Positions 4,000 to 46,330 of a stretch of DNA of 64,000 bases are shown piece by piece. Source of the DNA: Siphonodentalium dalli. Taxonomy: Eukaryota; Mollusca; Scaphopoda; Gadilida; Siphonodentaliidae. The DNA lies in NCBI GenBank assembly GCA_032622095.1, contig CP136068.1, forward strand, positions 158,861,465 to 158,925,464, given 5' to 3'. Made by a program: the position numbers and the translations under genes. How positions within the stretch are numbered: the stretch's first letter is position 1; each line of letters starts with the position of its first letter. The notes under the pieces were generated by a model. That model had not been told where the DNA came from. It made no database searches and worked only from the letters and a program-made list of their open reading frames with translations.

Positions 4000-4130
4000 G
4001 TGGTGTATTGATGGTAACATGGCGTGACATTGACAACTTCGGGTTTATGTTCAACCGATTCACAAAGCGACAAGGTTGAACACAGGCTAAAAGTGGTCAA
4101 TGTCATGACATGTTACCATCAATCCACCAC
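4000..4130. repeat. foldback hairpin
   Basis: The left arm starting GTGGTGTATTGATGGTAACA (4000) pairs with the right arm ending TGTTACCATCAATCCACCAC (4130), continuing inward through TGACATTGAC and GTTCAAC. The arms are about 55-60 bp with mismatches around a short loop near 4060. The first codons of a 151-codon + frame (4024-4479) lie inside it, so that frame's start is not trustworthy. Confidence 0.75.
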
Positions 4131-4288
4131 AATGGCGTACATGTATTTGTTCTGCCAACAGTCCTGGTCATTCACATTAATTTGGCACTTATTCCGCATA
4201 ATGATCAGCAGAAAATGTCAAAATCTCCTAAACCTCTCTCCAACATATGACATGAAACGGCCATCGAGAGACGATGAAGCGGTCTTGG

Positions 4289-22025: not shown

Positions 22026-22060
22026 TATAAATTTATGATCTGTTTTATCGTTATTCATTC
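22026..22060 (+). promoter_or_regulatory. core promoter: TATA box and initiator
   Basis: TATAAAT at 22026-22032 and an initiator match TCATTC at 22055-22060, whose A (22057) lies 31 bp after the first T of the TATA box, the canonical spacing. The ATG follows 42 bp later at 22099. Together with the signal-peptide exon and donor this makes a coherent RNA polymerase II promoter. The start position is inferred, not shown. Confidence 0.7.
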
Positions 22061-22098
22061 GTTTCTTATCAGAGCGTTAATTCTACACGGCAGCGAAT

Positions 22099-22186
22099 AT
22101 GAATAAAGCAATTCTGGTCATAGCTTTGGTTCTTTGTCTCATGGGATCCATTTCGGCGGGACGACCAGATGATAACGGTCCACAAG
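22099..22186 (+). CDS. secreted cysteine-rich peptide, exon 1 (signal peptide)
   Basis: ATG at 22099 opens 29 codons plus one base, ending at a consensus donor CAAG|GTAAGT (22187). The peptide starts MNKAILVIALVLCLMGSISA, a textbook signal sequence: one Lys at position 3, a hydrophobic core of about 12 residues, then the small-residue site SISA|G. It continues with an acidic GRPDDNGPQ. The start is supported by the TATA box and initiator upstream, and no upstream ATG lies in the short 5' UTR. The exon leaves phase 1, matching the exons at 31839 and 38037. The 9.6-kb intron that follows contains two 31-bp arrays, element A, the 54-bp array and the 24-bp array. I do not recognise the family. 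The signal exon is strong; its joining to the later exons is inferred from phase and splice sites. Confidence 0.7.
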
Positions 22187-22518
22187 GTAAGTCTGTCTAA
22201 TTATCACACCCAACAGTTACAAACAATTATTTTCCAAAGGAGAGAGTGTTAACGACGGGACAAGCCTATTTGAACTTCAAGTGGTCAATGTTCCCTTAGA
22301 ACGTCATCTGATACACCAGTCGGTGACAATTAACAAACGCGTCCTGATCGGTATATTTTTTTCAAACGATAATCCTGCATTTCCACAACTACCCCATTTA
22401 CTGCACAAACATCAGCAGCATGGATTATAAGTAGTAGTTCGTCTTGTCGGAGTGATTGTCATTTTGTTTATTGCGATTAATTCGTCCCATCAGTAAAGAA
22501 GTATTTATTCATTTACAA

Positions 22519-22715
22519 CATACTGCGTGTACGTCGGACGTTATCATTTACAACATACTGCGCGTACGTCAGGCGTTATCATTTACAATATACTGCGCGT
22601 ACGTCAGACGTTATCATTTACAACATACTGCGCGTACGTCAGACGTTATCATTTCATACTGCCCGTACGTCATACGTTACCATTTCATACTGCGCATACA
22701 TCAGACGTTATCATT
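22519..22715 (+). repeat. 31/35-bp minisatellite, array 1
   Basis: Six units: four of about 35 bp (with an extra ACAA) and two of 31 bp, consensus CATACTGCGCGTACGTCAGA then CGTTATCATTT. Each carries TACGTCA, a CREB/ATF-type half site. A unit length not divisible by 3 makes each frame cycle through all three readings, which explains the two overlapping repetitive frames at 22456-22802. It lies in intron 1 of the small secreted-peptide gene, about 330 bp after exon 1. Confidence 0.85.
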
Positions 22716-23717
22716 ACGTGCGCTCGCGCAACAGTATGGCGACCAGACAGATTCGTTCGTAGCTTGGTGTCACACCCCATGACGTCACCAAAAACGACGT
22801 AAAACCTCGTGGCGTTCTGACATTTTTACTGTGCTATTTTTGCTATGTTTATTTTATGTGTTGTTTTCGATTATTTGTTTGTCGCCGATATCGCCATATT
22901 TGTCAGGATTCCCTGTTTCTATATTTAAAACTGGCATGCTCGTAGTGAGCCTCGATTTCGATTTTTTCTCCCAGGTCAAAATACGTCAGAGTTAAGACAA
23001 AAATAGATCGACCTACATTTTCTCCATCAGAACTCTACATTAAAGAGTCTATAGACTCCTTCTGGACCTACATAGACTCCTTCATTTGGGTATTTTTACT
23101 TATAATTGGGAAGTTTTGTCATTTTTGGTTCGTGCGAAGACCTCTTTTTATCGTGCGGGAAAAGAGAGACATTCAAAACGCGATTTCGTAATTCGACGCA
23201 ATAGGCTGAATAGCCTAACCTTCAGGCGAGTTCCGGGTCAAATATGACGAATGACGTAACACAAAACAAAACGCATTTGTTGACACAAACACCGTTTGAA
23301 GAGTTTATTATTACATAAAATGATCGTTACTGATTAATTATTGATTAATTATTGATATTTATTGTTGCATATTGGCTGCTATCAATATTTACACAAATAG
23401 TATTAATTATTTCGTATAATTGCTCCTTTTGTCAACTTTGACTATCGGAAAATGAAAATGAAAATATTCCGCTGAAAAAAATGTAATCGATATTAAAGTC
23501 TCATCCTTTTGGCAACATGGTATTGGTTTTAATTACTTAAATGATTAATATAGTAATTTGCCTTTTATCTGTGATGAAATGAGAAATTGTAATTGTCTTT
23601 TTTTGCTAACATTAAATTAAATTAAATAAATTAAGTAAAATACAGTGAAATTATTTTTTAAATTATTGTTTATTCCATTTTTGCGCACGTTGGCATCTCT
23701 CTGAGTGCATTCTAGTT
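22716..23717. other. unique stretch between the two 31-bp arrays
   Basis: Intron 1 sequence: GACGTCACC and ACGTCAGAG motifs near 22780-22990, then AT-rich DNA with TTGATTAATTATT repeats near 23330. No gene seen. Confidence 0.4.
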
Positions 23718-24000
23718 TCATACTGCGTGTACGTCAAACGTTACCATTTCATACTGCGTGTACGTCAAACGTTACCATTTCATACTGCGTGTACGTCAGA
23801 CGTTACCATTTCTTACTGCGTGTACGTCAGACGTTATCATTTCATACTGCGTGTACGTCAGACGTTATCATTTACAACTTACTGCGTGTACGTCAGACGT
23901 TATCATTTCATACTGCGTGTACGTCATACGTTATCATTTCTTACTGTGTGTACGTCAGACGTTATCAGTTTTACTGCGTGTACGTCAGACGTTATCATTT
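23718..24000 (+). repeat. 31-bp minisatellite, array 2
   Basis: About nine units of 31 bp (one with the 4-bp ACAA insertion), consensus CATACTGCGTGTACGTCAGA then CGTTATCATTT. It is the same family as array 1 but with GTGT instead of GCGT before TACGTCA in nearly all units, so the arrays were homogenised separately. Three overlapping frames here (23705-24059) are repeat artefacts. Confidence 0.85.
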
Positions 24001-24177
24001 TAAATCCAATAGTCGACGTGGCTGGAATTGATGTTGGGTTTTTTGTTTTTTTGTTTTAAATAGTTTTATTGGTATCAAAACATGAACATCATAAACACAT
24101 TATTTCCCGAAAATAAAGACGACAATTTGGTTTTACACAGAGAATTAGAGATTTATAAATCAAGCTAGTGGGTTAGA

Positions 24178-24815
24178 CTAAGATTTTGAGGACACCTGGT
24201 TATCATATCTCCATGAAGATGCAGGATGTTTAAAAACATGTCCAGGTGCTCCGCTGTTCATGGTGTTATATATATACTGGCTAATTGTTCTCAGTTTAAA
24301 AGAGATGTTGGTGTAATCGTGTGCCCCACATGTGCCCAACACAGAGCGAGATTGTAAGTTGTTTATGTTAGGATGTGAAACTGTTCTAATAAAATGAAAT
24401 ATAATCCTCTGCAATGGGCAAATGTACCCTTATCAGATGCCAGTATTGTAGGATTTTGAAAAAGTCATGTTAATGACTGTTTCCTTTTATCTCAGAAGAA
24501 ACTATATCTTATTGCAAACTGTCACCACTATTTTTGAACAGGCCTTCTATATTTCCATCTCCATTGGCAATTTGTATCTGTTTGTGGAATATCTTGAATG
24601 GGATTGTGTTGTAATACATGAACCAATCCAATGTGCCATCCCCTGACGGTTCAAGATCCCTCATTTTGAATATACTTCTAATGATTTCTTCTATGGATCT
24701 GTTTTTGCTATAGCTCACTATATGAATGCCTGATTCCCGTCCCTATATAAATATAACTGTTGAGAAGATATACGTGTTCAGGTGACTTAATTCGGTCACC
24801 ATTTGTCGATGTTGT
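24178..24815 (-). pseudogene. decayed unknown protein of element A
   Basis: On the minus strand, frames include SPEHVYLLNSYIYIG, then SYSKNRSIEEIIRSIFKM with GDGTLDWFMYYNTIPFKIF, and finally INNLQSRSVLGTCG with TMNSGAPGHVFK, SSWRYDNQVSSKS and a stop. Frame changes separate the blocks; a CATTGCAG acceptor-like site near 24415 could instead mark an intron. Element B encodes the aligned SLEQVYLLNSHIYMG, INNSKSRSVSGIC and TMNRGAPGNLFE...SSWRYDSQMSSRS with a stop at the same place. Conservation of amino acids and of the stop across two diverged copies is evidence of real past coding. I do not recognise the family. Confidence 0.6.
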
Positions 24816-25722
24816 GAACGCCAAAAACTAATTAGAACGAATTATGGAGATGACTATATTTAACTTTGGTGGATATTGGCGACTAAAATATTTCTATTAA
24901 TGTTAGTGCCCCTCCTCTCTCCATCCCTGACCCAGCGGCACCAACTGTGGCATCTTTATCCCACATAATTTGATTCCTCGTATCATCTGAGAAGAACCTA
25001 TGCGCGAGTTTAGTTTCAATTATATAGTGCTAAATATATATTTGTAACAGCTTTGTTGCCCTTCCCCTCCACATTCATGACTCGAACGGTGCCACTTTTG
25101 ACATATCTAAACCACGTCCAATAGACTCCTGATATCGTGGAGATAAGTATGTGTACGTTTGGTGATAATCGGCAACTAATCAAATTTGTATCAAATTTAG
25201 TGCCACATCTCTCAGCCAAACGACACCAATTTGACATTTTGAAATCACTCGATTATATACCTCGTACCATTGAGAAGAATATGTATCAATTTGATGGAAA
25301 TATTTTTTGTATCAATATTTGGTGCCCCTCTCCACCCCGTGCACCCCTTACTCTGCACCATATTATGGAGATTTTTATGTAAAAGTAAAAACACCGACAG
25401 TCTCACTTTAGAAAATTTAAACGCACACCATTATCTTCCTTGTAAAAAGTTACACATGTTAGGCCCCTTTGGCGCCATCTAGATGGTCCCCTGTGAAGTT
25501 ATATAGATCACAGACACTCGCAAATATGGGCACCGAATGTGGCGTCTATATAACCCACACGCTTTGATTCCTCGTATCGTTGGAGAAGAACATGTATGAA
25601 TTTGGTGGAAATCGGCGCTAAACATATTTCTTTTATCAGTGTTGGTGACCCTCTCCTCCTAATCCTTATCTTTTGACATCTTTAAATTTACAAAATTAGA
25701 ACCATTACGAAGAGATACATGT

Positions 25723-26516
25723 AGAGGATATCCAACGAGTTATGTTGGGATATATAGAGTGATCTCCCCTACATATAGAAGATTTCCAACGAGTTATGTT
25801 GGGATATATAGAGTGATCTCCCCTACATATAGAAGATCTGCAACGAGTTATGTTGGGATATATAGAGTGATCTCCCCTACATATAGAAGATCTCCAACGA
25901 GTTATGTTGGGATATATAGAGTGATCTCCCCTATATATAGAAGATCTCCAACGAGTTATGTTGGGATATATAGAGTGATCTCCTCTATATATAGAAGATC
26001 TCCAACGAGTTATGTTGGGATATATAGAGTGATCTCCCCAATATATAGAAGATCTCCAACGAGTTATGTTGGGGATATATAGAGTGATCTCCTCTATATA
26101 TAGAAGATCTCCAACGAGTTATGTTGGGATATATAGAGTGATCTCCTCTATATATAGAAGATCTCCAACGAGTTATGTTGGGATATATAGAGTGATCTCC
26201 TCTATATATAGAAGATCTCCAACGAGTTATGTTGGGATATATAGAGTGATCTCCTCTATATATAGAAGATCTCCAACGAGTTATGTTGGGATATATAGAG
26301 TGATCTCGTCTATATATAGAAGATCTCCAACGAGTTATTGTTGGGATATATAGAGTGATCTCCCCTATATATAGAAGATCTCCAACGAGTTTTGTTGGGA
26401 TATATAGAGTGATCTCCCCTATATATAGAAGATCTCCAACGAGTTATGTTGGGATATATAGAGTGATCTCCCCTACATATAGAAGATCTCCAACGAGTTT
26501 TGTTGGGATATAAGAT
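25723..26516. repeat. 54-bp minisatellite, about 15 copies
   Basis: Fifteen near-identical units with CCAACGAGTTATGTTGGGAT, ATATAGAGTGATCTCC and CTATATATAGAAGATCT. Because 54 is divisible by 3, all frames stay open, giving repetitive 18-residue frames on both strands (25759-26353 plus, 26310-26642 minus). Single-base insertions at about 26070 and 26334 change frame without any selection against it, arguing that it is not coding. The unit is nearly the outer arm of the hairpin that ends the array. Confidence 0.9.
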
Positions 26517-26639
26517 GTTATGAAACGAGTTTGATAAATTTGATTCACAACGAGTCGTAAACGAGTTGTGAATCAAATTGATCAAACGAGTTTCATAAAA
26601 TCTTATATCCCAACATATCGAGTTGAAGATCTTGTATAT
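26477..26639. repeat. foldback hairpin with a CTCG-type apex, copy I
   Basis: The left arm (GATCTCCAACGAGTTTTGTT ... TTGATTCACA) pairs with the right arm (TGTGAATCAA ... GAAGATCTTGTATAT). The apex holds a direct repeat, ACGAGT-CGTAA-ACGAGT. The left arm overlaps the last 54-bp unit, so the minisatellite appears to have grown from this arm. About 150 bp of unique DNA following it is shared with copy II. Confidence 0.85.
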
Positions 26640-26835
26640 CACATGAAAAAAACTAAAGCCTTATGCCTTTTTAACAACATCAGCTCTGTAGAGAACACGC
26701 AAACAGTATACAAGTCTCGTGTTGGCTCAGACGCTTCACCACTATACGTCAGTACTGCGCAACGAAATATAGTCCCTTTTAGTTTCGCCTCTATTTGACG
26801 TCTATTGGGTTATTTATTGGTAACATTTGTCAATA

Positions 26836-27000
26836 ATATATAGAGGATCTCCAACGAGTTTTGTTGGGATATAAGATTTTATGAAACGAGTTTGATAAAT
26901 TTGATTCACAACGAGTCGTAGACGAGTTGTGAATCAAATTTATGAAACCAGTTTCATAAAATCTTATATCGCAACATAATGAGTTGAAGATCTTGTATAT
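26836..27000. repeat. foldback hairpin with a CTCG-type apex, copy II
   Basis: Nearly the same hairpin as copy I (apex ACGAGT-CGTAG-ACGAGT), followed by the same flank (27001-27165 matches 26640-26790: CATGAAAAAAACTAAAGC ... CACTATACGTCAGTAC). So hairpin plus flank, about 330 bp, was duplicated in tandem. Confidence 0.85.
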
Positions 27001-27240
27001 CACATGAAAAAAACTAAAGCTTTCTGCCTTTTTAACAACATCAGCTCTGTAGAGAACACGCAGACTGTATACAAGTATTGTGTTGGCTCAGACGCTTCAC
27101 CACTATACGTCAGTACGGCGCTACACGCGCAAAGAAATATAGTCCCTTTTAGTTTCGTCTTTATTTGTAATATTTGTCAATAATATAATTTTAATCAAAA
27201 CAAATAATCAGTTTTCAATAGTAATTCACAGTTTCTCGTT

Positions 27241-27535
27241 ATAATGTCAGTCGCGCAGGTATACAATGAAAGTGATTACCGCTTGGACTATTAGCTATTA
27301 GCCACTAGTGACAGATAAGAAAATATGTAATTGAGTTTTCAATGATATTATAGGGGTTTGATGTGATATATTATAATTTGTTGATCTTTTGGTACGGAAG
27401 CAAAATTACATCACGCGCGCAGGTATACAATGAAAGTGATTACCGCTTGGACTATTAGCCACTAGTGACAGATAAGAAAATACGTAATGGATTTCTCAAT
27501 GATATTATAGGGGTTTCATGTGATATAACTATATA
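27241..27535 (+). repeat. direct repeat pair about 170 bp apart
   Basis: GCGCAGGTATACAATGAAAG, then GATTACCGCTTGGACTATTA and AATGATATTATAGGGGTTT, occur at 27254-27365 and again at 27418-27520 with few differences. No frame of interest. Confidence 0.75.
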
Positions 27536-29525
27536 TAACATTGGTGGCAATCGGCGACAAATTTATTGTCCCCACCTCTCACACAAACGGCACCAATTTG
27601 ACATCTTTAACTCATACAATCAGATTCGTCGTATCATGGAGAAGAATGTATGTATTGGTGGAAATGGGCGCTAAAATATTTTTAATTGTGTTGCCCCTCT
27701 CGCCGAACGGCGCCACTTTTGACATATTTAAAACACAGCATTAGATTCCATGTATCATGGAGAAGAATGTGTATCAATTTGGTGGAAATCGGCGGTATAA
27801 ATATTGTTATCAATTTTGGCGGTCCTCTCCCCTTCCGTGCATCAATGACTCGAATAGCACCAAGTTTGCCCTCCTTAAATCACACCATTATATTCCTCAT
27901 ATCATGGAGACGATTATGTTAAGTTTGGTGGAAATCGGCGACGAAAATATGTTCTGCCCCTCCCCTCTTCTACCCCTGACAAAACAGCGTCACTTTTAGA
28001 AAATTCTAACCCCCACCATTATCTTCCTCGTCAAAGGTTACCCCTGTTCACCCCATTGGTTCCATCTAGATGGTCCCTCGTTAATGTATATAGAACACAG
28101 ACAGACAGACATTCGCAAATATAGATATATATATTTCATCTCAATTGATGAGTGTTGACCATATAATCTGAGATTCTGGTCATTAAGTTTCCCAAAAATA
28201 AGTGAAATCAATAAATTCATTTCCGACCTTAACGTCTGAATAGAGGAGATACATTAAATTACCCGAAACGGCATATATTTGGACGCTTTTAATAACACGA
28301 TTAGATTCGTTTTATGGTGGAGAAGAAAATGTATCAATTTGGTGGAAATCGGCGGTAAAAATAGTTTTCTTTTATAAATGTGAGTGCCCTTCTACCCCTC
28401 TGTGCATCCCTGACCGAACGGCGCCATATGGATATGATTATGTATAAGTTTGGAAATTGACGACAAAATATATTTAATCATCTTTGATGCCCCATACACT
28501 TTCTTCCCTGATACCAACAGCGTCACTTTAGACAATTTTAACCCGAACCATTATCTTCCTCGTAAAAAACGCCTGTTTGACCCCTTTGTCGTCTAGATGG
28601 TCCACATTGAAGAACACAGACAGACAGCCGTTCACAAATATAGTCACCAAATATGGCGACTTTAACACACACGATCTGATTCCTCGTATGATTGGATAAT
28701 TTTGTGGAAATTGACGCTAAAATTACTTTTTTATCAGTTGTGGTGACCATCCCCTCCATACCCCTCAACAAATGGCAAAACTTTGATATCTTTAAACAAC
28801 ACAATTAGAATCTTTATGAAATTGACTATTTATAAAATTGGTGGACATCGGCGACTAAACAAATTGATATCAAATATGGTGCCCTCATCTCTCACCCAAA
28901 ATGACACCAATTTGACACATTTAAACCACGAATCACGGAGAATAATATATACCAATGTGGTAGATGTCGGTGCTAAAAACACTTCTATACATTTTGGTTG
29001 ACTCGAACTATTGACAACATTAAGCCACACAATTAGACTCCTGATATCATGGAGATAATTGTGTATACGTTTGGTGGTAATCGGCGACTTTTTTTTTTTT
29101 TTATAAAATTTAGTACCCCCCCCCCCACATCTCTCATCCAAACAGCACCAATTTGGCGTCTTAAATCACACGAATAGTTCCTTGTATCATGAAGAAGAAC
29201 GTTTATCAAATTGTTGGAAATCGGCGCTAAACATATCTTTTTATCTCCCCTTAAGTGCACCCCTGACTCGACTGGTGCCACTTTTGAGATACTTAAACCA
29301 CAACTTTAAATTCAGGAAGATGATTATGTATAAATTTGGTGGTATTCGGCGACTAAAAATATTCTGACAACAATAGCGTCACTTTAGAAAATTCTAATCC
29401 GCACAATTATCTTTCGCGTAAAACGTTACCCCAGTTAGGTCCCATTGGTGCCGTCTACATGACCCCCTGTGAATTTCGATAGAACACAGACAGACAGACA
29501 TACATTAGCAAATATAGATATAGAT

Positions 29526-31176
29526 AATCGGACAACGTGCTAATTTCATGTCAACTGTTAATGGCGAATTCATTTTGTAATTAGGTAATGTGATCTTTAC
29601 AAACGAAGAAGGCCTCCGTGGAAGCAACCGTCTCTGGGTTTTATTAAAATTGGTAATTATTTTCAAATGACGTCCAGAAGGCTCATGTCTTGACGGTTAT
29701 ACAGATATATTTGGTAATTAAACACGTAGATATATCCACAGAACATTAATTGTAATACGACCTTACCTAAACCCACATACAAGGCTCGTCCTGACTGGTC
29801 GGTATCATGTATTCCACATACAAGGCTCGTCCTGATTGGTCAGTAGCCTGTATTCCCATGGAGAAACGACCGTCGTTTTGTGGTACAATTCTAGATATTC
29901 TGAATTGTACCACAACAAAATGTGGTACACTCAGTGAAATTCTGCCAATGCCTCAAACTAGGAGAAGTCAAGTCACACGGGCATTGCTTAAATGTCATGC
30001 TATAGACTGAAGAAAGAGACATAATATGACCATACGCTAGCGTAATTAACGAACCACAACTAAAACACACGCATGCATAAGCTAGGATATATATGTGTCT
30101 TTTTAATCCTATAAAATAACTTCATAGATGCGTATTCGCATCAAATATGATTAACTTAGGCCTTATACCGTGGTGTGGTTATGATATATTACACTCAAGA
30201 CATGCACAAGAGTTCATCGACAGAGTGGGTCCTATAACAATTTGTTGTATAAATTAGGTCAATCATATCATACATCAAGGCATGTGAGAAATCAGAGATT
30301 CACAATGCAAACAGACTACGAGCTCATCGACCCAGACTTAAAACCTATATAAAAAAGTTTGTCCTTTTGAACAAATTATTATATTTTACCGAAATTAACC
30401 ATTATATTATTGAGATGTATACTATACGAAGAAGCTTGTCGATTTCATCATGTTCATTTCATTCATAAAATGTCATCAAGGAAACTCGACGAGCAACGTT
30501 ATCATGTAGCTTTCACCATCGACCGAATTTGCTATAATCTGAATGTATCTTCTGTTTTGTTCATAAGTATGTGTTTCTTGTCGATTCATGAAAATAGAAG
30601 GATATCTGAGGATTTTATATTTTAGGCCACTCCATTGCAAATATTTGACAGTCCATAATATGTTATAATTATGTTCTCAATAAAATGTAAACCGCGGCTA
30701 CGAATGAACTTCACTGTGCATAATTCCGATAGTAACTCGCCTCATTTTGAAACGGCGGCCATTGAAAGATGCACACGTTAATTTCAGATTATATTATTAT
30801 TACGACATTAATGCGTTAAGCCCACAGATCTACTGTACGACAAAGCGCTCGCAAAATTTCAAAAAAGCAGTGTCGTATTAGATAATAATTGGCGACGTCA
30901 CAAAATCAGATATAGTCTAAATACGACCCAAAGCGTCCGGATTTGGTTCGTTATAATGACTACCTACTGTACTGTACTGATTTTATTTAAGATAGAACAA
31001 AAATAAGTCTTAACTGAATTTTGTTTTGCCGAAAAAGGCAATGAAAAGGGGTCGCCGTTCAATAGTGACGTCATGTTTGACGTTACAGTTCTATGAGAAG
31101 AACTGTCTGGTGAAAATCATACCACGCAGGGCTAGAAACTGTGCTATTATATAGCAGGTTGAACGTGTGTCACTAA
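29526..31176. other. intronic stretch with small repeats
   Basis: No gene supported. It contains a two-unit, 41-bp tandem duplication (ACATACAAGGCTCGTCCTGA at 29777 and 29818) and a short hairpin at 29875-29921 (TTTTGTGGTACAATTC / GAATTGTACCACAACAAAA). Frames are short. Confidence 0.5.
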
Positions 31177-31250
31177 AATTTGACCACATAAACTGATTGT
31201 AGGACTCCGCTTCGCGTCGTCCTGCAATCAATTTCTTTGTGGTAAAATTC
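31177..31250. repeat. short foldback hairpin
   Basis: AATTTGACCACATAAACTGA pairs with the right arm ending TTGTGGTAAAATT. The apex is AGGACTCCGCTTCGCGTCGT, richer in GC than the arms. It resembles the CTCG-apex hairpins but the apex repeat is imperfect (CTCCG / CGTCG). Confidence 0.7.
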
Positions 31251-31475
31251 TACTATAAACGCCGATGCGCAGTGTATTTATTTCTTGAATAAACGTTCGC
31301 TACACTAATGCGCGGACTGTCGAATTTAAATTTATAAGTAATTTCAACATTGCGGGCCGTAATGAGACAAACGCTCTTTATGGTCATTGTTACTCCAAAA
31401 TGTACACATATGCTACTGTTAATGTAAAATCAACAAATTTCCCACTAATTACTGGTTAGAATATCAAGCAATGAG

Positions 31476-31735
31476 GACAAAATTCCACCTATCTGTGATG
31501 TAAAATGTCCACCTATCTGTGATGTAAAATGTCCACCTATCTGTGATGTAAAATGTCCACCTATCTGTGATGTAAAATGTCCAACTATCTGTGATGTAAA
31601 ATGTCCACCTATCTGTGATGTAAAATGTCCACCTATATGTGATGTAAAATGTCCACCTATCTGTGATGTAAAATGTCCACCTATCTGTGATGTAAAATGT
31701 CCACCTATCTGTGATGTAAAATGTCCAACTAGTTT
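31476..31735. repeat. 24-bp minisatellite, about 10-11 copies
   Basis: Near-identical units TGATGTAAAATGTCCACCTA-TCTG. The length is a multiple of 3, so repetitive open frames appear on the minus strand (31445-31747, 31464-31799); they are by-products. The array ends about 100 bp before the acceptor of exon 2 of the small secreted-peptide gene. Confidence 0.9.
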
Positions 31736-31838
31736 TGTGCCCGGCAAAAACTTCCCAACAGTTGAAACAAAGGGGTTGGGGTGAAAACCCTGCCGCCACG
31801 TCCCTGATTGTACATTCTAGTCTCTTGTTTTATTTTAG

Positions 31839-31916
31839 ATAAATCATGTGGTTGTGGTGATATGCCTGATGGCGTTGTAACGAAAGACAGGGGCCAGGAT
31901 GAGTGCCGATGTTACG
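31839..31916 (+). CDS. secreted cysteine-rich peptide, exon 2 (CxC...CxC)
   Basis: A 78-bp exon with strong sites: acceptor TCTCTTGTTTTATTTTAG (31838) and donor TACG|GTAAGTG (31917). Both sides are phase 1, matching the donor phase of the signal exon at 22186. The joined frame is open and contributes 26 residues: SCGCGDMPDG early and GQDECRCY at the end, giving four cysteines as C-x-C, a gap of about 17, then C-x-C. Charged and small residues dominate between them. A 1-1 symmetric exon of this kind is typical of secreted cysteine-rich modules. I know no family with this exact spacing. The exon sits in otherwise repeat-filled DNA, just after the 24-bp array. Another skipped or included phase-1 exon elsewhere in the intron cannot be excluded. 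Confidence 0.7.
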
Positions 31917-32353
31917 GTAAGTGAGACAAACAATCCAGGGCCGGGAACCTACGTCATGATTTGGTCGAAAATGGCGGCAAAAACGGGTGGTGGTGGTGGT
32001 GGGGGTGCATGTCTGGTATAATAATTGAAGCAACATTGAAACGATCGCGAGATTTGTTTGTTATGAGTGACGCGTGTCGAACAATGGGATATCACTGAAA
32101 TATTAGTTTGGCAACCTTGGGCGAACGGAAGGGGGTGGCAATAGTAACACATACATTGGTTGAATTATTTATTAACTAGTAGAATAATTACATTTATCAC
32201 ATAATTAACCCACAAAACCAGCTTCATAATTATTGGTAAGACACACGTGTAATATTAGCGCGTGCGACGACGTCACGCCATTATTTAAATGACTTGTTTA
32301 TGATTGTTGTTTTCGATGAATACTTCGCGTTGCTTCGCGCTTATTTGATCATG
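31917..32353. other. start of intron 2 of the small secreted-peptide gene
   Basis: Contains a GGTGGTGGTGGTGGGGG tract near 31988 and a GACGTCACG motif near 32270. No gene seen. Confidence 0.4.
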
Positions 32354-32518
32354 TAATAAAAGTTATCTCAAACTCGTTCTATCTTATACGTAATTTATCA
32401 ACCTCGTCCACTAAATTCTGTTTGAGCCTCGGTAAACCTCGGCTCAAATCGAATTTAGTGAACTCGGTTGATAAATTCCGTATAAAATAGAAACTCATGT
32501 GAGATCCTCTATTTATTA
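32354..32518. repeat. CTCG-apex foldback element with TAATAAA ends
   Basis: Begins TAATAAAAG (32354) and ends with the inverse TTTATTA (32518). The arms of about 70 bp (CTCGTTCTATCTTATACG ... CTAAATTCTGTTTGAGC) enclose an apex CTCG-GTAAAC-CTCG, a direct repeat. The same ends and apex logic occur at 53938-54120 although the arm sequences differ. Confidence 0.8.
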
Positions 32519-33211
32519 TAATTATTCCACAAAACTAATCCAGTTCCGAAAATATTCACAGGTACTCTGGACCACTAATATAATCCAACGATGAAACTAA
32601 ACGAATTAACATTTACATTTAGAACCACTAAATGGTGATATATCCACTTCACTATATAGAGCTCCACATATCCGATATAACTAACAACAGAACTTGTTTC
32701 TGGAGAATCTGGAGGAACCAATGGACTATTAATAGTAATTTAGGAACAGTTTTCTTGTAAAGGCGACACGTTTGTCACATAATAATAATGTGCGGCAAAA
32801 AGTAAGTTGGTTGTTGGTTACATGTCCAAATTCCATGTCATAATTCTGGCAGACAGACTTCTTCTGAATTCATGATCCACTTATACATTGTATATAATAT
32901 AATAGTAAGACACAATCATGCGACTGCCACATTTGACTTTCCAAACACATCTGCGAGTGACTTCGTTTGTGAAAACGGGTCACCCGTTAATCACGTGCAT
33001 GGGACCAGTCCGTGTCGTTTCGGACATATTTATTCACATTCAACGGCGACCATTGCATGGTTAATCGGATTGTTAGGCGTGGCTAACGGGCTATATATAT
33101 TGTGTTGAATCTCGGCGAGCGCACGGATTTCGCGTCGTGGTCAACACACGCTCAACGGTGCATTTCCTGTTAATTGCATTATGTGGGGTCAATTGTGCTC
33201 TAAGTCGGTCA
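32519..33211. other. intronic stretch
   Basis: No array or hairpin seen. The 78-codon frame at 32872-33108 has no recognisable motif and no signal of being a gene. Confidence 0.4.
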
Positions 33212-33290
33212 GAGCACGTGAATAGTTCTTTACCAGAATAAATCTCGTCTTCGACTCGATTGATTCTGGTAAAGAACTATTCTTGTGTTC
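33212..33290. repeat. CTCG-apex foldback hairpin, short
   Basis: A perfect 20-bp arm GAATAGTTCTTTACCAGAAT (33220-33239) pairs with ATTCTGGTAAAGAACTATTC (33263-33282); a few more bases pair outside. The apex reads CTCG-TCTTCGA-CTCG, a direct repeat inside inverted arms. Confidence 0.85.
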
Positions 33291-34619
33291 TAACCATTAC
33301 ATAGAACATTAATTCTGCATCGGTCAACATTGATTTTGAATCTAAATCTGTTAAGACGGAATTGTCTGTTATTGAATCCAAGAACGACTGTTGGTTTGAA
33401 AATGGAAACTATTGGTTTGAAATAATTATATTGCTATTGAATGTGCGATACATATAATTGTTTTCACAAACCACCATTAACTTTTATTTCATGTAATTTC
33501 CGATCGAATGGCCGCCCATAGCCCAGCTATTGTTCACATCTAAATATCGACAGCAATTAACGCGGTCATACAAGTTACATACTCCAACATTCACTGTGTA
33601 TATCCGACACCGAATATTATGCAGGAAAATTTCATTTGTTTACTTAATATGCCTACATTTTTTTTTATCAAATAATCGTGATTGTTAAAAACCAGGACAC
33701 ACCAGGAGGATATAATCCCGCTGAATAATAGTAGAGTATATCATACTTCTAAGATATACTATCTATACATTCTGGTTATAATGTAAGTTCTCAGAAATCA
33801 CGATTATTAGGTTAAATTATACCGATCGTCTGCAACTTGGTCTGATAAACACCGATTTTCTCATATCTAAAACGACTGTATGTTTACATATTGATATGCA
33901 CATTGCGTAAGAAAGGTCCACAGTGACTTACATACCACCAAACATGAGTTTGTCGGCTGTTTGTTAATATTATTGTCAAAAGACATAATTATTTTTTGTA
34001 CGGCGAATTGCAGGAGTTCTGTCATGCAAATTGCAATTCGCATGTTTTATTGCTGTACGGCATATTGCAAGCCCAAAACAATATCTGCCTATTGTAGGCA
34101 AATATGTTGGCCAAAATGGAGGTCATGTCATTACACATCATCACGGTGACGATTTCGTAATTTTGTTGCTTTCAAGCTCATTGCGACACCACGTGTATGC
34201 CAATTCAATAGTGACTTATTTTTTAGCTTCAAAATCACATCAGAGGGGGCTATCTATCAGAACTCTAGTTGACATTGTAAATTTGAAGGTCATCTTTGAA
34301 ATTTAACACAAACTATCATATTTGGCGATGGTTATGGTACAGATTTTCCCGAAACGCCAAACATTGAATTGAGCATTAATGGTTATACACCTCCCATTTA
34401 CTAATGTTCGAAGTCAATCTTAGTTTACACAAAGCCTGACTTCACACACCAGCACTGCATGGTTAGTAACTGCACGCCAACAATGGTTTTATAAATAAAA
34501 AATAAATATGCTGCGACTATGTGAATTATGTCTTTGTGTGCAAAAACATATTTATTTGTGATAAAACCTCACTTTCAAGATTATTTATCCCCCCCCCCCC
34601 ACCTGATATTTTGGTAAAA
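33291..34619. other. intronic stretch
   Basis: AT-rich; a poly-C run near 34588-34600. The 91-codon frame at 34031-34306 is not recognised. No repeats apart from short runs. Confidence 0.4.
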
Positions 34620-35060
34620 CTATTGTAATCGTGCGTCCGTTCGTATGTCCGTCCGATTTCTTGTCAGGCTGTTAATGCCAGTTCAAATTATCCGATCTAA
34701 ACGACACTTCGTATGAGGAACGACAAATACATTATTGAGGTCAATTTCAATTATGGTTCTAGTCCGATGATCTTTTTACTATGTGTTATGACTTTTTTTT
34801 TAATTAGAAATTGCCATTTTCATGTTGTCCGGATAATATTAACTCCGGTGAAAAATATCCGATCGGAACGAAACTGTGTACGAGTAATAAACATTACATT
34901 ATTGAGGACCGGTTCCAATATCCTTCCGGTCAGATGATTTTTACTAGAGCTAAAGTCCTTTTTAGACCTATAAATTGCCATTTTCGTGTTGTCCGAATTA
35001 TTCCAGTTAATATCAACTAATCCCAACTAAACTTGACTCAGGATTATCAATCACATTGTT
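34620..35060 (+). repeat. diverged repeat of about 150 bp in tandem
   Basis: Starts with CGTGCGTCCGTTCGTATGTC. Two to three diverged units share AATTGCCATTTTCATGTTGT, CCGATCGGAACGAAACT and ACATTATTGAGG. Frames here (34713-35026) follow the units and are not called as genes. Confidence 0.5.
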
Positions 35061-35414
35061 CAAGTCAACTTTGAGCGTGGTTAAGATCTGCTGAATTTTG
35101 ACGGAGCTTTTTCTTTTATAAAAATATAAACTGATTCCACTTAGAATCTGACGATTATTATTCCACCATGTGCAAATTCCACACATTGTGTTTTTCTGAG
35201 CTTGTGTCTCATATGGTTGTTGTAGCACACTTGGCGACATGGTGTCATGACCGTCTTGATTTATGTATATCTTCAGGTTATACTTGTATATAGTTTGAAA
35301 TCCGCATATCTCACATGTTGTTTCGATGTCCACCTGAAAAGACTCCACTACGGGTGCGATATAAAATGATGACAAATTGGACAGAATTAATACCTTGATC
35401 GCAATTTGTGCCAT
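35013..35414 (-). CDS. unrecognised 133-codon open frame
   Basis: Starts at an ATG (35414), MAQIAIKVLILSNLSSFYIA, and continues with CEICGFQTIYKYNLKIYINQ and MCGICTWWNNN before a TGA at 35013. It has four cysteines arranged as two C-x-x-C pairs (CEIC and CGIC) and mixed hydrophobic/charged composition rather than a repeat pattern. Two CxxC pairs could bind zinc, but no named domain can be supported. It overlaps the tandem repeat below and a plus-strand frame above, so it may be a transposon fragment or chance. No splice sites or promoter were identified. Confidence 0.3.
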   Translation of the reverse strand: MAQIAIKVLILSNLSSFYIAPVVESFQVDIETTCEICGFQTIYKYNLKIYINQDGHDTMSPSVLQQPYETQAQKNTMCGICTWWNNNRQILSGISLYFYKRKSSVKIQQILTTLKVDLNNVIDNPESSLVGIS

Positions 35415-35597
35415 TTATACATGTACGCAGTACATGTAACCGGCGCTTTGAACGGATATAGTGTGGTCGTGGGAGAGTTGAACCCGGACGAAATTGGATA
35501 CAAGCTGATGTTGGTGTCATTCGATGCGGAAAAACACCAGGAACAATATATCCAAAATCCGCAAAAATCCTCTCATGTGAAAATTCAGGATCGCTAA
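35406..35597 (+). CDS. unrecognised 63-codon frame with coding-like codon use
   Basis: The stretch VTGALNGYSVVVGELNPDEI followed by GYKLMLVSFDAEKHQEQYIQ is encoded with GC-rich third positions unlike the AT-rich flanks, ending at TAA 35597. The start is uncertain because the listed start is not ATG; an ATG lies a few codons in (MYAVHV). No family is recognised. It lies in intron 2 of the small secreted-peptide gene and may be a transposon remnant or an exon of an overlapping gene. It conflicts with the 104-codon minus frame at 35311-35625; this strand looks the better of the two. Confidence 0.3.
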   Translation: MCHLYMYAVHVTGALNGYSVVVGELNPDEIGYKLMLVSFDAEKHQEQYIQNPQKSSHVKIQDR

Positions 35598-35785
35598 ATA
35601 CTGAATTTCTGCGTAGGTGCTTCAATTAATGCCAAATTCGTAATAAATTGAAATATACACAAACAATGCTTCTAAAGTCGTAAACCATATCTGTAGACTG
35701 TTTTTCCCAAAATGGCCGCCAAAATGGACAAAATCGAATGAAACTTGCATTTTGTGCAAAATTGAATAGCTAGTCCAATACGAGT

Positions 35786-36355
35786 AAACCATGACCACAC
35801 TAATATCACGCTGTGGACATGGTGTCACTAATATCACGCTGTGGACATGGTGTTATCTGATTACTGACCCGAATCATGACCACACTAATATCACGCTGTG
35901 GACATGGTGTCACTAATATCACGCTGTGGACATGGTGTTATCTGATTACTGACCCGAATCATGACCACACTAATATCACGCTGTGGACATGGTGTTATCT
36001 GATTACTGACCCGAATCATGACCACACTAATATCACGCTGTGGACATGGTGTCACTAATATCACGCTGTGGACATGGTGTTATCTGATTACTGACCCGAA
36101 TCATGACCACACTAATATCACGCTGTGGACATGGTGTCACTAATATCACGCTGTGGACATGGTGTTATCTGATTACTGACCCGAATCATGACCACACTAA
36201 TATCACGCTGTGGACATGGTGTCACTAATATCACGCTGTGGACATGGTGTTATCTGATTACTGACCCGAATCATGACCACACTAATATCACGATGTGGAC
36301 ATGGTGTCACTAATATCACGCTGTGGACATGGTGTTATCTGATTACTGACCCGAA
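35786..36355. repeat. higher-order satellite of 28- and 57-bp units
   Basis: The basic unit CACTAATATCACGCTGTGGA-CATGGTGT (28 bp) alternates with a longer 57-bp form that adds TATCTGATTACTGACCCGAA and TCATGACCA. Repeat starts (CCACACTAAT) fall 85, 85, 57, 85, 85 and 85 bp apart, so 28+57 is the main higher-order unit, with one bare 57. Copies are almost identical, implying recent expansion. The open frame 35876-36058 is a by-product. Confidence 0.9.
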
Positions 36356-36501
36356 CTTCAAATGTGAAGGCTATTATAACCCCGGTGCATGAATAATGTG
36401 GTAAGGTCATTGCTGGTGAAATTATTGGCATTTAACAAAATACAAAATTAGAGTGTTGACATGAACATATACACATGGAAAGCCATAAACATATATGTGC
36501 C

Positions 36502-36942
36502 GCATTACTCAATCCGATCAGAGGGTCCCCATATCATCAAGATACAACAACAAAATTTCTTCAAAATACGCTTTAGTTATCAGAATCGATTAATTACAAC
36601 AATATAATGCTAACCATAGTGACTGTCAATTATGGTATCAAATTTCCCAAACGTGTTATTTATCAACATTTTGGTCAACGAAATATCTTCGTATTATCAC
36701 GGAACTTTACCGTATTACTACTTGTTGTAGAGTTATCCATCTTCCGCAATTTTGACCGACACCATCCTTCTGATGGCGTGTTTCTGGGCCACAAACAATT
36801 GAAATAACAAACTTCAAACATCGATATCTGATCACTCTGAGCCTTGATGGGTAGGTACATCGACTCCAATCAAATATAGTTTTACCACCGAAGCCAAAGA
36901 AATAGTAATTTAGGGGTGTTTGATCGGATTGAGCACCTTTAA
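36502..36942 (-). mobile_element. TTAA-flanked MITE, copy 3 (inverted)
   Basis: The right end GATCGGATTGAGCACCT-TTAA (36922-36942) and left end ACTCAATCCGATC (36507) match the terminal repeat of 17261-17698. The inside (GGGTCCCCATATCAT ... CCACCGAAGCCA) matches it in reverse. The left TTAA is eroded. The two minus frames of 64 and 131 codons crossing it are not genes. Confidence 0.8.
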
Positions 36943-37734
36943 GTAAGGTGCGCGTGGGACAAATGGCAAGCCTGCAGACACTGCGGTTCTGAGATATTAT
37001 AGACCCTTCTACTACATGTGTAGCTGAATTGCTGTATAGGTCTCTAGTGTGAAATTGTATATATTTAAAGGTATGTGGTACGGGCTCAGTGGAATAAATC
37101 ACTTCTTTCTTTCATTGTCCTTCAAGTTGGTGAACATTAAATGTGAGACACCCTTGCGTGGCGTGCGTGCTTGCCTTGAGGGCTGATTGAAATGCTACGC
37201 TGAGGAGTTATTTAAGCATACCGATGCTGGTAAATAAATTAAGATATTGCCATTAAATAAATTAACAAAGGTTAAACAAACTTTCAATTCAATTCAAATA
37301 ATTTATTATCTTAATACTCATATTGTGCAATTTCATGAGTATTGAGATTAAACATATTTACAAATGAGAATATGAGAACCGCAATGTCAGCAATTGCGGT
37401 GGTCTGGACGGTGGGACGGTGGCCCTATTCTCTATGTCGGGGTAGCAGCGGACAGAAACATTATACAAACACTACCTTTCATATATGGGCTTATTTTATA
37501 ATCAAATATGTCGAATATGAACTCAATTAAATGTGTATCCCTTGAAGAAGTCCAGTGCGTTGAATTTGTTGTTTGCGCGTGTTGCCAAGAACACGTCACG
37601 ATTTTCCTGGTAAAAATCAAACATTATTGATCGCTCCGATGTGCACGCGGCCTTGTCGTGAGCATGCATAGTGGGTGCTCCGCCCCACCAGTGATTTCAC
37701 CACCTACGTTTTAAAAGTCGCACTAACACGCAGA
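36943..37734. other. intronic stretch
   Basis: No gene or larger repeat seen; AT-rich around 37200-37350 with a run of TTCAATTCAATTCAA near 37286. Confidence 0.45.
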
Positions 37735-37804
37735 CGATTCAATCACTGTACTGAATCAATCACTGTAATGATTCAATCACTGTAATGATTCAATCACTGT
37801 AATG
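37735..37804 (+). repeat. 18-bp tandem repeat, four copies
   Basis: Four units of AATGATTCAATCACTGTA, the first slightly diverged. About 230 bp upstream of exon 3 of the small secreted-peptide gene. Confidence 0.8.
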
Positions 37805-38036
37805 GCGCCCGTTGAGTCATATACAATACACTTTACATGGGGTGGAATAACAAGAAGGACTCGGTCACTATAGTCACGCGCTTGCTAAGACACCGCCTCG
37901 GAAAAATAGTAATCAGTGTAACTATTTCCAGAGGTGTATTTTGAACAACACACATGACTATTGACCGATGATGCCCGCAGGACGCGACAGAGCTGATAAT
38001 AAACACTCACTGATACCATTTATTTCAATTCTACAG

Positions 38037-38074
38037 ACACAGTCAAGGATGCATTTTGGTACTATCTGGTTTAA
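38037..38074 (+). CDS. secreted cysteine-rich peptide, terminal exon
   Basis: The acceptor TTTATTTCAATTCTACAG (38036) opens a phase-1 exon that continues the frame from 31916 and adds DTVKDAFWYYLV before TAA (38072-38074). No further cysteine is added. The three exons total 204 coding bases, 67 residues, of which about 46 would remain after signal removal. A polyadenylation signal lies 53 bp past the stop, which favours this as the true last exon. The aromatic, hydrophobic C-terminus (FWYYLV) is unusual for a soluble peptide and could be a membrane- or receptor-contacting tail; that is inference. RNA evidence would settle the joining. Confidence 0.55.
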
Positions 38075-38126
38075 GGATGTCAATGATGTCGAGTTCGAGA
38101 TGGACTCCACAAGAAAACTACATATG

Positions 38127-38155
38127 AATAAAATGTAAGAACCCACACCGTGTTG
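38127..38155 (+). terminator. polyadenylation signal of the small secreted-peptide gene
   Basis: AATAAA at 38127-38132, followed by a GT-rich element (GTGTTGTTTTGTTATTCTTG, 38149 on) at a suitable distance for cleavage. Confidence 0.6.
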
Positions 38156-42516: not shown

Positions 42517-45500
42517 TCAGTTAAATCGTTTGGTATCGTCGATGAACTTTTGGACGGAAATGAATATGTCGGCATTTTTGGTATTAGATATATCTACGGA
42601 CCCATACAGTAATATTTTGACTTCCAAGTTCACGTTCAGATTGGCTAAATAACGGACTCTTTCACGCTCGAATATTGGACAGTGGAGTAAGAAGTGCTCA
42701 GCAGTTTCTAATTCTCCACAGTCGCAAAATGGACTATTATTCAAATGATTGCAAAACAGGTCATATTTCAAGTTACTGCAGTTTGTTCGCAGGCGACAGT
42801 GATAAATTTGGCTTGGTCTTCGGTACGCTATATAATAATATGACGGTATGATAATTCGATCGGTTAAAAAAAAAATTCTTAAAGTCAGAGACAGATTCAC
42901 ATTCTTTCGCCTTTGGCGGAAGGTTGTTCCATAATTTGACGGTAGCTGGAAGAAATGAATTTTCGTATCTTGTCGCGTAAACTCTGGGAGTCCTGAGACC
43001 CTTTTGTCTGAAATTATAATTGGTTAGACTTCCAGATTCAATAGGAACTAGAGTATATAAGTAAGGGGGCGTGGCTTTCCTAATCATTTAAAAAAATTGC
43101 ACAAGTTTAGTTTTTTCTCTCCTGCTAGATAGTGAGTCCCAACCGGTTTCCCGTAATAGTGATTGTTTGCTGCAGCTTCTAGTTGCTCCCGTGACTAATC
43201 TAGCAGCCTCGTATTGAATATCTTCCAGAGAGGTTGAATTTTCAACTGAGCAATTACCCCATACCGAGGAGGCATATTCCAACACTGGACGGATGTATGA
43301 CAAGTATATGGTCTCAAGGGTTCTCCTGTCCAGAATGAATTTATATTTCCTCAGTATATACATTCGACTTGCGGCTCGATTTTCAATATCAGTGACATGA
43401 TCTTTCCACGTACCGTCTCTGTTAAAAGTAAGACCTAAATGTTTGTGTGTTTCGACTTCTACAATATCCTTGTCCGACATCTGAAGGGGAGGGTGGACGA
43501 TTATGTTATTTTTCCATGATACTAAAAGTGATTCTGTTTTCATGGGATTAAATTTCACTAGCCATTTTTGAGACCATTCGAAAATCAGACTAATATCGTT
43601 GTTGATTACCTCTGCGGCAATAACTGGGTCTTCAATGGATAGAAATAAAGAGGTATCATCAGCAAAAAAGCCATACATTGCACGTAACATTGTCTACAAT
43701 ATCATTAATGTAAATTAAAAAAAGAAGAGGGCCGAGTATGGATCCCTGGGGCACACCAGCTGAGACACAGCTCCAGCAGGAGTTCGAGTTTGAAACAATT
43801 ACTCGCTGGTGCCGATTGTCCAAATAATTTTGTAATAGGTCATATGTTGGGCCGACAATTCCCATTCTTTTCAACTTAAATAGTAAGCCCCGATGCCACA
43901 CCTTATCGAATGCCTTGCTGATATCACAGAAAAGGCACCTAATTTCGTTGCCATTATCAAGAGAAGATATTATATAATGGTAAACATCTGTTAACTGAAA
44001 TACTGTGCTATCTTGCGGAGTGAATCCCGATTGAAGGTTTGTTAGAAGCATACTATCTCTTAAATATTCATTCATGTGAAGGTATATACACTTTTCGAAA
44101 ATTTTGGACAGGCAACAGAGAAGAGAAACTGGGCGATAATTACTTGGGTCGGTGGCGTCGTCTTTTTTGTATATGGGACATACATTTGCCACTTTCCATT
44201 CAGGCGGGAAGAAAGATTTTTCAAGAAATTTCTTGAAAGCAAATTCTAGTGGACCAGCTAGGGAGGATGCACAAAGTTTCAATATTCTTGGACTAATTCC
44301 GTCAGGGCCACTGGCTTTTGCCGTTTGAACACTTTTCAGTGATTTATATATTTCTTCGCGTGTGATAACGAATGTATCTAGTCTTGATTGAGTTTTGTAT
44401 TCAAATGGCGGTAATTCTACTCTGTCTTCATTCGGGAGGGCAGAAATCGAGCAAAAGTATTTATTAAAAATCTCAGCTTTTGATTCATTGTTGGTTGTAA
44501 TCGAATCCCCATTTTTTAATGCCGGTATGTTTTTTCTGTCAGGGCCCATGAGTCGATTCATAGTTTTCCACCAAAGTGAAGATTCTGTGAAGCAATTTCC
44601 CAGTACTGACTGTGTTTTATCGATTAGTCTCTGCTTGGCACTCTTTATGCAAGAGGTGACCTCGTTTCTTTTGGATTTATATCGGACCCAGGCATGATCG
44701 GTTTTCTTGCGCTTAGCGTTTGAATAAAGTCGCCTTCTTTGTCTAATTAGTCTGCGAATTTGGCAAGTCATCCAACTAGGTTCGTCTTGTCGTATGGAAG
44801 CTATTTTATTTGGTATGTATTTTGAGGCTAAGTGATTTATTTTGTCTGTTAACGTACTCGCTATACGTGTATACTCTATCTCAGATAATTCTGAATTATA
44901 ATTCCATTGTTGGAGATCATTGTTCATTGCAGTAAAATCAGCTGCATCATAGTTCCAAACTCTTCGCTTGATGACGCGATTCGATTTCACTACGTTTAGA
45001 CTTAATTTCACTAATATTGGACAGTGATATCGAACCAGGTCAGCAAAAAAAGGGTCCATAATTTCATATGATTCGACAAGAAGTGGTTTATTGGTCATAC
45101 ATAAGTCGAGAATTGACAGTGAGCTCTCGGTAAAATATGTCGGTTCTTTGATAATTTGTGTCAGTCCAATTTTCTGTCGAATGTATCTTATTGGCGTTGT
45201 TTCGGTTTCTAGAACATTTGAACTAAAATCCCCAATGACCACGACATGAGAACAATGGCTATTGTCCATTGCCATATCGATCGAAGAATATATTTTCTCC
45301 CATAGTTGAACTGGCGAATCCGGTGGTCGATAAAAAGTTCCAAGCAGAAAGCGCGATGTTGGAGTTACAATTTCAAGCCATACGCATTCTACACCGAATG
45401 TTTCCAATTCTCGGTGTCTTTTGGAGTTTAATGAATTAGCGACATATACTGCGATACCACCACCATGCGATGAGCGATTAAATCTCTCCGGATTATGGAA

Positions 45501-45641
45501 TCCATGAATAGCAATTTCCGAATCTGATGTATCATTGGAAAGCCATGTTTCTGAGAATGCTGCGATGTCATAGTCTACTATTTCAGCAGACAATGTATCC
45601 AGTTTGGGTTTTATGCTCTGAATATTTAGGCACATCAATGA
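42517..45641 (-). pseudogene. LINE endonuclease-reverse transcriptase, broken
   Basis: Endonuclease motifs: SETWL (catalytic Glu), GTFYRPPDS, VVIGDFSSN (usual GDFN changed to GDFS) and RYHCPI (usual SDH changed to RYH), so the endonuclease is probably dead. Reverse transcriptase motifs: NYRPVSLL, FCDISKAFDKVWH, GVPQGSILGPLLFLIYINDI, then FADDT in a shifted frame, KFNPMKTE and HLGLTF. The C-terminal part has FLPATVKLWNNLP and a C-x-C-x7-H-x4-C segment (CDCGELETAEHFLLHC). Lesions: an extra T in a T-run (43664-43669) just before the YADD-type motif, TAA at 43088-43090, and a shift at a 10-base T-run (42866-42875). The intact protein would be about 1,000 residues. It nicks DNA and copies LINE RNA into the target site in active relatives. 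Confidence 0.92.
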
Positions 45642-45674
45642 TCATTTTCTATCAGTTTTTGTATCGGACAAAGA

Positions 45675-45698
45675 GGGACCCGGGTTCAAATGTACGTC
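45675..45698 (-). other. 2A-like motif between LINE ORF1p and endonuclease
   Basis: Encodes DVHLNPGP, a variant of the D(V/I)ExNPGP ribosome-skipping motif, with His for Glu as seen in other retroelement copies (from memory). It lies about 60 residues after the ORF1p core and about 15 before the endonuclease, in the same frame; a TGA (45642-45644) now separates it from the endonuclease. Confidence 0.7.
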
Positions 45699-46330
45699 AT
45701 ATGCTTGCATCAAGATTGATTTAAGTGTTTCTATTATAGCTCGCATTATATTGGATATAGAATATTGTATCACTCTTGAAATGTATGTTTTCACATTTTT
45801 GAGAACATTGAGATGGCGAGAACGCCTATTTCGAGTAATCTTTCTTAACTGCAGTCCAATTCTGATTGTGGATTGACGGTATGAATTGATCACCTTTGGT
45901 AAGTTTTCAATTATATAAAAATGAGTACCACGAAGTATACCACTTGATTTCTTCACTGTGTCCCTATCGTCCTGTCTCGTCCTGTCTCTTCACTGTGTCC
46001 CTATCGTCCTGTCTCGTGAATTTCGCCAGAATCGGTCTCGGGGTCCCATATGCATCTCTACCATCGCGGTTTCCTATTCTCACAAATTGGAATTCAATTT
46101 CCTTGTTCAGTTTCAACACATAATTAATTTATTCTTTCAATTATTTTCTGTAGATATAGCAAATTCATCTGATTGATCCTCGTCTATTCCCTATATTATT
46201 AATTCGTCGCGCATTACTCTGGTCTCCAAGTCCGTTACTGTTTCTAGGACGTGCTTGATCCTTTGTCTATTTTTGCCGATTTTTAAAGAATAATCATGAC
46301 CTGTTCTGTAATGTTGGTTTTAATAGTAAA
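45699..46330 (-). pseudogene. LINE ORF1p-type RNA-binding protein, broken
   Basis: Upstream of the 2A-like motif the minus strand encodes, in pieces, RQRIKHVLETVTDLETRVMR (coiled-coil pattern), KLNKEIEFQFVRIGNR, then TPRPILAKFTRQDDRDTV and ILRGTHFYIIENLPKVI. The order EIEF..VRIG - RPI..KF - DRDTV - LRGT.FYI.E.LP is that of LINE ORF1 proteins (RRM plus C-terminal domain), which bind LINE RNA as trimers and act as chaperones (family knowledge). Two stops lie between the coiled coil and the core, and a 37-bp insertion (31-bp repeat) breaks the frame at DRDTV. The 5' end is uncertain. Confidence 0.75.
45950..46017. repeat. 31-bp direct repeat interrupting LINE ORF1
   Basis: TCTTCACTGTGTCCCTATCG-TCCTGTCTCGT occurs at 45950-45980 and 45987-46017, a 37-bp offset. 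It shifts the ORF1p frame by one base; removing one copy restores it, so the duplication arose after insertion. Confidence 0.85.

What the first reader, a model, noticed from the sequence alone, without database searches (positions are those of the whole stretch)
22026..38155. A complete small gene for an unknown four-cysteine secreted peptide
TATA box, correctly spaced initiator, signal-peptide exon, two phase-1 introns with consensus sites, a C-x-C...C-x-C exon, a terminal exon with stop, and AATAAA with a GT-rich element all line up on one strand across 16 kb of repeats. The product has 67 residues, about 46 mature, with an aromatic C-terminus (FWYYLV). The cysteine spacing matches no family I know. 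Each site is visible in the sequence; their joining is inference.
Basis: partly seen in the sequence, partly recalled or inferred. Interest (0 to 1): 0.82.

Follow-up and report, generated by a model that had tools for sequence, protein, structure and literature searches.

The report
Probable small secreted-peptide gene, end uncertain
The first two exons look like a real gene for a small exported peptide with four cysteines in an animal genome, but the proposed last exon is no better than chance and nothing here shows that the gene is used.

Summary
They are not equally credible. Exon 1 (TATA box, initiator, start codon, signal sequence, perfect donor) is the only such exon in 184 kb on both strands; 0.002 per 184 kb are expected at random. 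Exon 2 (symmetric, C-x-C...C-x-C) is the only strict phase-1 internal exon downstream in the window; 0.5% of random 42-kb stretches give one with four cysteines. Exon 3 is one of 31 comparable terminal exons in 32 kb, against a random mean of 26.6 per 30 kb, so the tail DTVKDAFWYYLV and the length of 67 are guesses. No Pfam family, significant PDB sequence match or paralogue in the 2.23-Gb genome (sensitivity control) was found. Animal relatives could not be searched, so 'orphan' is untested. Best reading: a real, apparently single-copy gene for an acidic secreted peptide, ordinary in kind and of modest interest.

The parts
22026..22031 (+). TATA box TATAAA
   Evidence: one of 5 TATAAA + TCAKTY pairs (27-34 bases from first T to A) on both strands of 184 kb
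22055..22060 (+). initiator TCATTC, A(+1) at 22057, 31 bases from the first T of the TATA box
   Evidence: function inferred from consensus
22057..22186 (+). exon 1: about 42-nt 5' UTR, ATG 22099, signal peptide, phase-1 donor AAG|GTAAGT
   Evidence: only its own place matched in the 2.23-Gb genome (that search skips very common words)
22099..22158 (+). signal peptide coding part, if cleaved after A20 (G21 is also possible)
   Evidence: hand-made rule, core hydropathy 3.8; the script's own first allowed cut was after residue 16, A20/G21 is by eye; no trained predictor run
31839..31916 (+). exon 2: 78 nt, phase 1-1, C-x-C-x16-C-x-C, donor ACG|GTAAGT
   Evidence: the exon matches only itself in the genome. 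A weaker in-frame acceptor at 31821 would add six residues and a fifth Cys
38037..38132 (+). proposed terminal exon (DTVKDAFWYYLV, stop 38072-38074, AATAAA 38127-38132): uncertain
   Evidence: acceptor in the top 1% of AG sites, but the exon as a whole is at chance level

Best explanation
A real RNA polymerase II gene of an animal, apparently single-copy, transcribed on the + strand from a TATA/initiator promoter at about 22057. Exon 1 encodes a cleavable signal peptide plus a short acidic linker. A 9.65-kb phase-1 intron is removed and exon 2 adds the C-x-C-x16-C-x-C module. The precursor enters the secretory pathway, loses about 20 residues, and the four remaining cysteines most likely form two disulfides joining the first C-x-C to the second, giving a small, acidic, stable extracellular peptide. 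With exon 3 as drawn it would be 46-47 residues, pI 4.3, without dibasic sites, so it does not look like an ordinary neuropeptide precursor or a cationic antimicrobial peptide. I think it most likely acts outside the cell as a tissue-specific secreted effector or regulatory peptide. Shown by sequence: promoter elements, exon 1, exon 2, phases. Inferred: transcription, splicing, cleavage, disulfides, role. Terminal exon unresolved; exon 3 as drawn about 40%. The confidence given is for a real gene of which exons 1 and 2 are correctly read, not for the disulfide pattern or the role.
For: Exact sites and open joined frame. The only signal-peptide + strong-donor exon in 184 kb on both strands, against 0.002 per 184 kb expected for the full set of features. 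TATA/initiator pair in place, one of 5 in 184 kb. The only strict phase-1 internal exon downstream in the window, with 4 Cys. The three exon regions lie outside the 42% of the window that is repeated within the 184 kb, and each exon region matched as a whole only its own place in the genome.
Against: No transcript, no conservation test and no homologue. Criteria of the chance test were set after seeing the candidate. Introns of 9.65 and 6.12 kb, rich in repeats, are crossed by inference only. The terminal exon is at chance level. The single-sequence model of the exon-2 frame is weak (mean pLDDT 77.7, the other four models 71.4 to 61.5, pTM 0.33) and its hairpin pairs GVVTKD with QDECRC; the first C-x-C lies in isolated bridges, so the model does not show the two C-x-C stretches as the two paired strands. 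Foldseek with that model gave nothing at E up to 0.001.
Confidence: 0.72

Rival explanations
1. Exons 1 and 2 are the start of a longer secreted protein whose later exons lie elsewhere in or beyond the window, so the 67-residue peptide is a truncated or wrong reading. (This overlaps with the best explanation as far as exons 1 and 2 go.)
For: Exon 3 is at chance level; other terminal candidates have acceptors as good or better (exon 3 ranks 14 of 184 by acceptor score in the 92 kb downstream that I held). A relaxed internal exon also exists between exons 1 and 2 (27511-27647, 2 Cys).
Against: After exon 2 the relaxed + strand phase-1 internal candidates in the window hold 0 to 3 Cys (9 rows), several of them in the region of the retrotransposon that lies on the other strand.
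Confidence: 0.2
2. A decayed or no longer expressed gene: exons 1 and 2 keep intact sites but the 3' end is lost.
For: Terminal exon not above chance; no second copy found in the genome; a dispersed repeat is matched from 12 nt inside intron 2 on.
Against: Promoter, start, frame and both donors are intact, which is unlikely after long neutral decay.
Confidence: 0.1
3. Chance alignment of consensus sites in 64 kb of mostly non-coding DNA; no gene.
Against: The joint features of exon 1 are expected 0.002 times per 184 kb; exon 2 adds 0.5% per 42 kb.
Confidence: 0.07

Closest known systems
Lineage-restricted small secreted cysteine-rich peptides of animals (general class, recalled)
   Same: Signal peptide on its own first exon, phase-1 intron soon after it, short cysteine-bearing module on the next exon.
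   Different: No named family matched; C-x-C-x16-C-x-C spacing and acidic charge.
Disulfide-laddered beta-hairpin peptides (tachyplesin, protegrin and theta-defensin type; recalled)
   Same: Cysteines i and i+2 on two strands could in principle face each other in a ladder (inference from spacing).
   Different: Net charge about -4 where those are, as recalled, cationic; 16-residue loop; the weak model puts only the second C-x-C in its hairpin; no sequence match.
CS-alpha-beta defensins (Foldseek's top but insignificant hit was plant Ah-AMP1, 1bk8)
   Same: A C-x-C on a beta strand.
   Different: Foldseek E 7.4; only four cysteines after cleavage, no helix in the model.

Membership tests
Small secreted cysteine-rich peptide (descriptive class) | N-terminal signal peptide | tested here: met
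   Hand-made rule; no trained predictor available
Small secreted cysteine-rich peptide (descriptive class) | Short mature chain with an even number of cysteines | tested here: met
   Four Cys after cleavage (33, 35, 52, 54), 46-47 residues if exon 3 is right; length depends on the unproven exon 3
Small secreted cysteine-rich peptide (descriptive class) | Expressed and secreted | not testable with these tools
   No RNA or protein data
CS-alpha-beta defensin | Six or more cysteines with a C-x3-C helix and a C-x-C strand (recalled) | tested here: not met
   Four Cys after cleavage, none at i/i+4; 0 Pfam families
Neuropeptide precursor | Dibasic cleavage sites (usual, recalled) | tested here: not met
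   No two adjacent K/R in the 67 residues
Cationic laddered hairpin antimicrobial peptide | Positive net charge | tested here: not met
   pI 4.3, charge -4.3 at pH 7 with exon 3; pI 4.4, -3.3 without it
Cationic laddered hairpin antimicrobial peptide | Parallel disulfides between two strands | tested here: inconclusive
   Spacing compatible, but in the weak model the hairpin is GVVTKD/QDECRC and only the second C-x-C is in it; cysteine distances were not read

The most novel reading that the evidence does not exclude
Founding member of an undescribed family of acidic, two-disulfide secreted peptides (C-x-C-x16-C-x-C, aromatic C-terminus), restricted to this animal's lineage, with a new fold or role.
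Probability: 0.2. Interest if true: 0.45.

Novelty: new member of a known kind. Interest (0 to 1): 0.27.

Why it matters
If transcribed, it is one more gene of a kind that automatic annotation can easily miss (my judgement): tiny exons spread over 16 kb of repeat-rich DNA, no domain, no paralogue found. It would be a concrete test case for how many such peptides are overlooked in large invertebrate genomes. By itself it overturns nothing.

Tried and rejected
Paralogues: none found in the genome at E up to 10. A deliberately diverged copy of the peptide still found both larger exons (64% identity over exon 2, E 1e-7; 44% over the exon-1 hit, E 1.4e-6), so relatives down to about that identity should have been seen; more distant ones may be missed. 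No processed copy joining the exons appeared. In the 184 kb held, a six-frame look for C-x-C...C-x-C between an acceptor and a donor kept only exon 2 (1 of 19 open stretches); tblastn of exons 1 and 2 on the same DNA gave nothing else below E 0.49.

Microbial and viral collections: 2 stretches of viral contigs and 50 of prokaryote genomes matched a short pattern, none was confirmed as a relative, as expected for an animal gene. Rfam: no match at gathering score in the window; no tRNA.

I rejected it because the arthropod cuticle domain PF00379 and haemocyanin PF00372 gave no match, while the homeodomain, of similar length to PF00379, gave 150 (150 scored of 505 candidates). Neither of those two families rang in the control genomes, so the rejection is likely but not proven. 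Molluscan haemocyanin PF14830 (controls silent too) and haemerythrin PF01814 (controls rang in 7 of 14) gave no match either; the phylum stays unknown. A venom reading was therefore not pursued.

The 24-base minisatellite before exon 2 (31479-31731) is open in several frames, but by eye I see no good donor at its end; rejected as an exon.

Literature: species searches (1 paper; 0; 10 listed, none judged fitting from the listing); peptide fragments (2 listed, unrelated by listing) and theme (0). No paper on this peptide was listed by these.

Full report
Observation. The window lies in a 2.23-Gb, nine-contig genome at C8:158861465-158925464.

Exon 1 is well above chance. I scanned the window plus 60 kb on each side, both strands, for a start codon, an open frame, a signal-peptide-like beginning and a donor matching at least 8 of 9 consensus positions. 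One exon was found in 184 kb: this one, with a 9/9 donor. In 1466 random sequences of the same length (order-4 Markov from the same DNA) the mean number was 0.31 for a donor of at least 8, 0.013 for 9/9, 0.0055 with a TATA box added and 0.002 with phase 1 added. The criteria were chosen after seeing the candidate, so these are not clean probabilities. Five TATAAA + TCAKTY pairs at 27-34 bases exist in the 184 kb on both strands; one is this promoter.

Exon 2 is above chance. It is the only internal exon downstream in the window that accepts phase 1 with a good acceptor and donor. In 5907 random 42-kb stretches, 41% held any such exon, 15% a symmetric one, 0.5% a symmetric one with at least four cysteines and none one with C-x-C...C-x-C. 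The acceptor stands in the top 3% of all AG sites of the + strand. With relaxed limits a weaker in-frame acceptor at 31821 and a few other internal candidates appear, one of them between exons 1 and 2 (27511-27647).

Exon 3 is not above chance. Downstream of exon 2 the window has 31 terminal exons with an acceptor, a stop and AATAAA within 250 nt, against a mean of 26.6 per 30 kb at random. Its acceptor is good (top 1% of AG sites, full score on the branch-point rule), yet by acceptor score it ranks 14 of 184 candidates (AATAAA within 400 nt) in the 92 kb that I held downstream. Among the 25 best that one search printed, it is the nearest to exon 2 that combines a full branch-point score with AATAAA within 100 nt, so I give it about 40%. 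The aromatic tail should not be built upon.

Copies and relatives. Exon regions 1 and 3 match only their own places in the genome (at E up to 0.001, at E up to 1; these searches skip very common words). The exon-2 region matches itself, and its intronic flank from 31928 on matches four other listed places over 35-43 bases, a dispersed repeat whose count is a lower bound. The peptide finds only its own two larger exons; a diverged control copy still finds them. Pfam: 0 families at E up to 10. PDB sequences: one hit, PFE0790c (2kdn; a Plasmodium protein as I recall), E 0.75, not significant. Prokaryote genomes and viral contigs: no confirmed relative. The tools hold no animal relatives, so conservation, the most telling test, could not be made.

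Product. With exon 3 as drawn the mature chain is 46-47 residues, pI 4.3, charge about -4, no dibasic sites, four cysteines (the fifth, Cys13, lies in the signal peptide). The contiguous 30-residue frame around exon 2 was folded alone: mean pLDDT 77.7 for the best of five models, pTM 0.33, two strands forming a hairpin (residues 14-19 and 22-27, GVVTKD and QDECRC). The first C-x-C is only in isolated bridges there, so the model gives no support for a ladder of two C-x-C strands, which the spacing alone would allow. Foldseek against the PDB gave 3 matches at E 7.4 to 9.6, none significant.

Species. The size and nine contigs resemble the scorpion Hadrurus arizonensis (PMC11126328, abstract and passages), but arthropod cuticle and haemocyanin domains gave no match while the homeodomain control gave 150 matches. 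The animal is unidentified.

Verdict. Very probably the real first part of a small secreted-peptide gene, with an unproven 3' end and untested expression. Genes of this kind are, as I know the field, common in animals; interest is modest.

Noticed in passing
window 1-5133, continuing upstream to about 21.6 kb before the window start (L007-L009): A tandem array of five 5,336-bp units, about 99.8% identical, ends at 5133. No tRNA or Rfam match in the part inside the window, no Pfam match for its one frame tested (4018-4476): a young macrosatellite or repeated segment.
   Followed up: partly
window 31479-31731: A 24-bp minisatellite (10.6 copies, 97% matches) 107 nt before exon 2, open in several frames on both strands (+ frame repeats PPICDVKC).
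   Followed up: partly
window 25722-26512: A 54-bp minisatellite of 14.6 copies in intron 1, open in long frames on both strands.
   Followed up: no
window 43088-45641 (perhaps 42517-45989), - strand: A LINE-type retrotransposon with endonuclease and reverse transcriptase domains, split over more than one frame.
   Followed up: no
about 24.9 to 30.6 kb past the window end (L012-L013): A satellite array of about 5.8 kb with a period of about 42 bp.
   Followed up: no
L013:6761-7459: An open frame with a full von Willebrand factor A domain (E 1.7e-41), probably an exon of a neighbouring gene.
   Followed up: no
L010:2427-6399: Two long + frames of 604 and 510 aa without a significant Pfam match; nature unknown.
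   Followed up: no
G000:C7:76.98-79.08 Mb: Thirteen homeodomain matches by my count of the list, 11 on the + strand, spread over 2 Mb: possibly one expanded Hox cluster.
   Followed up: no
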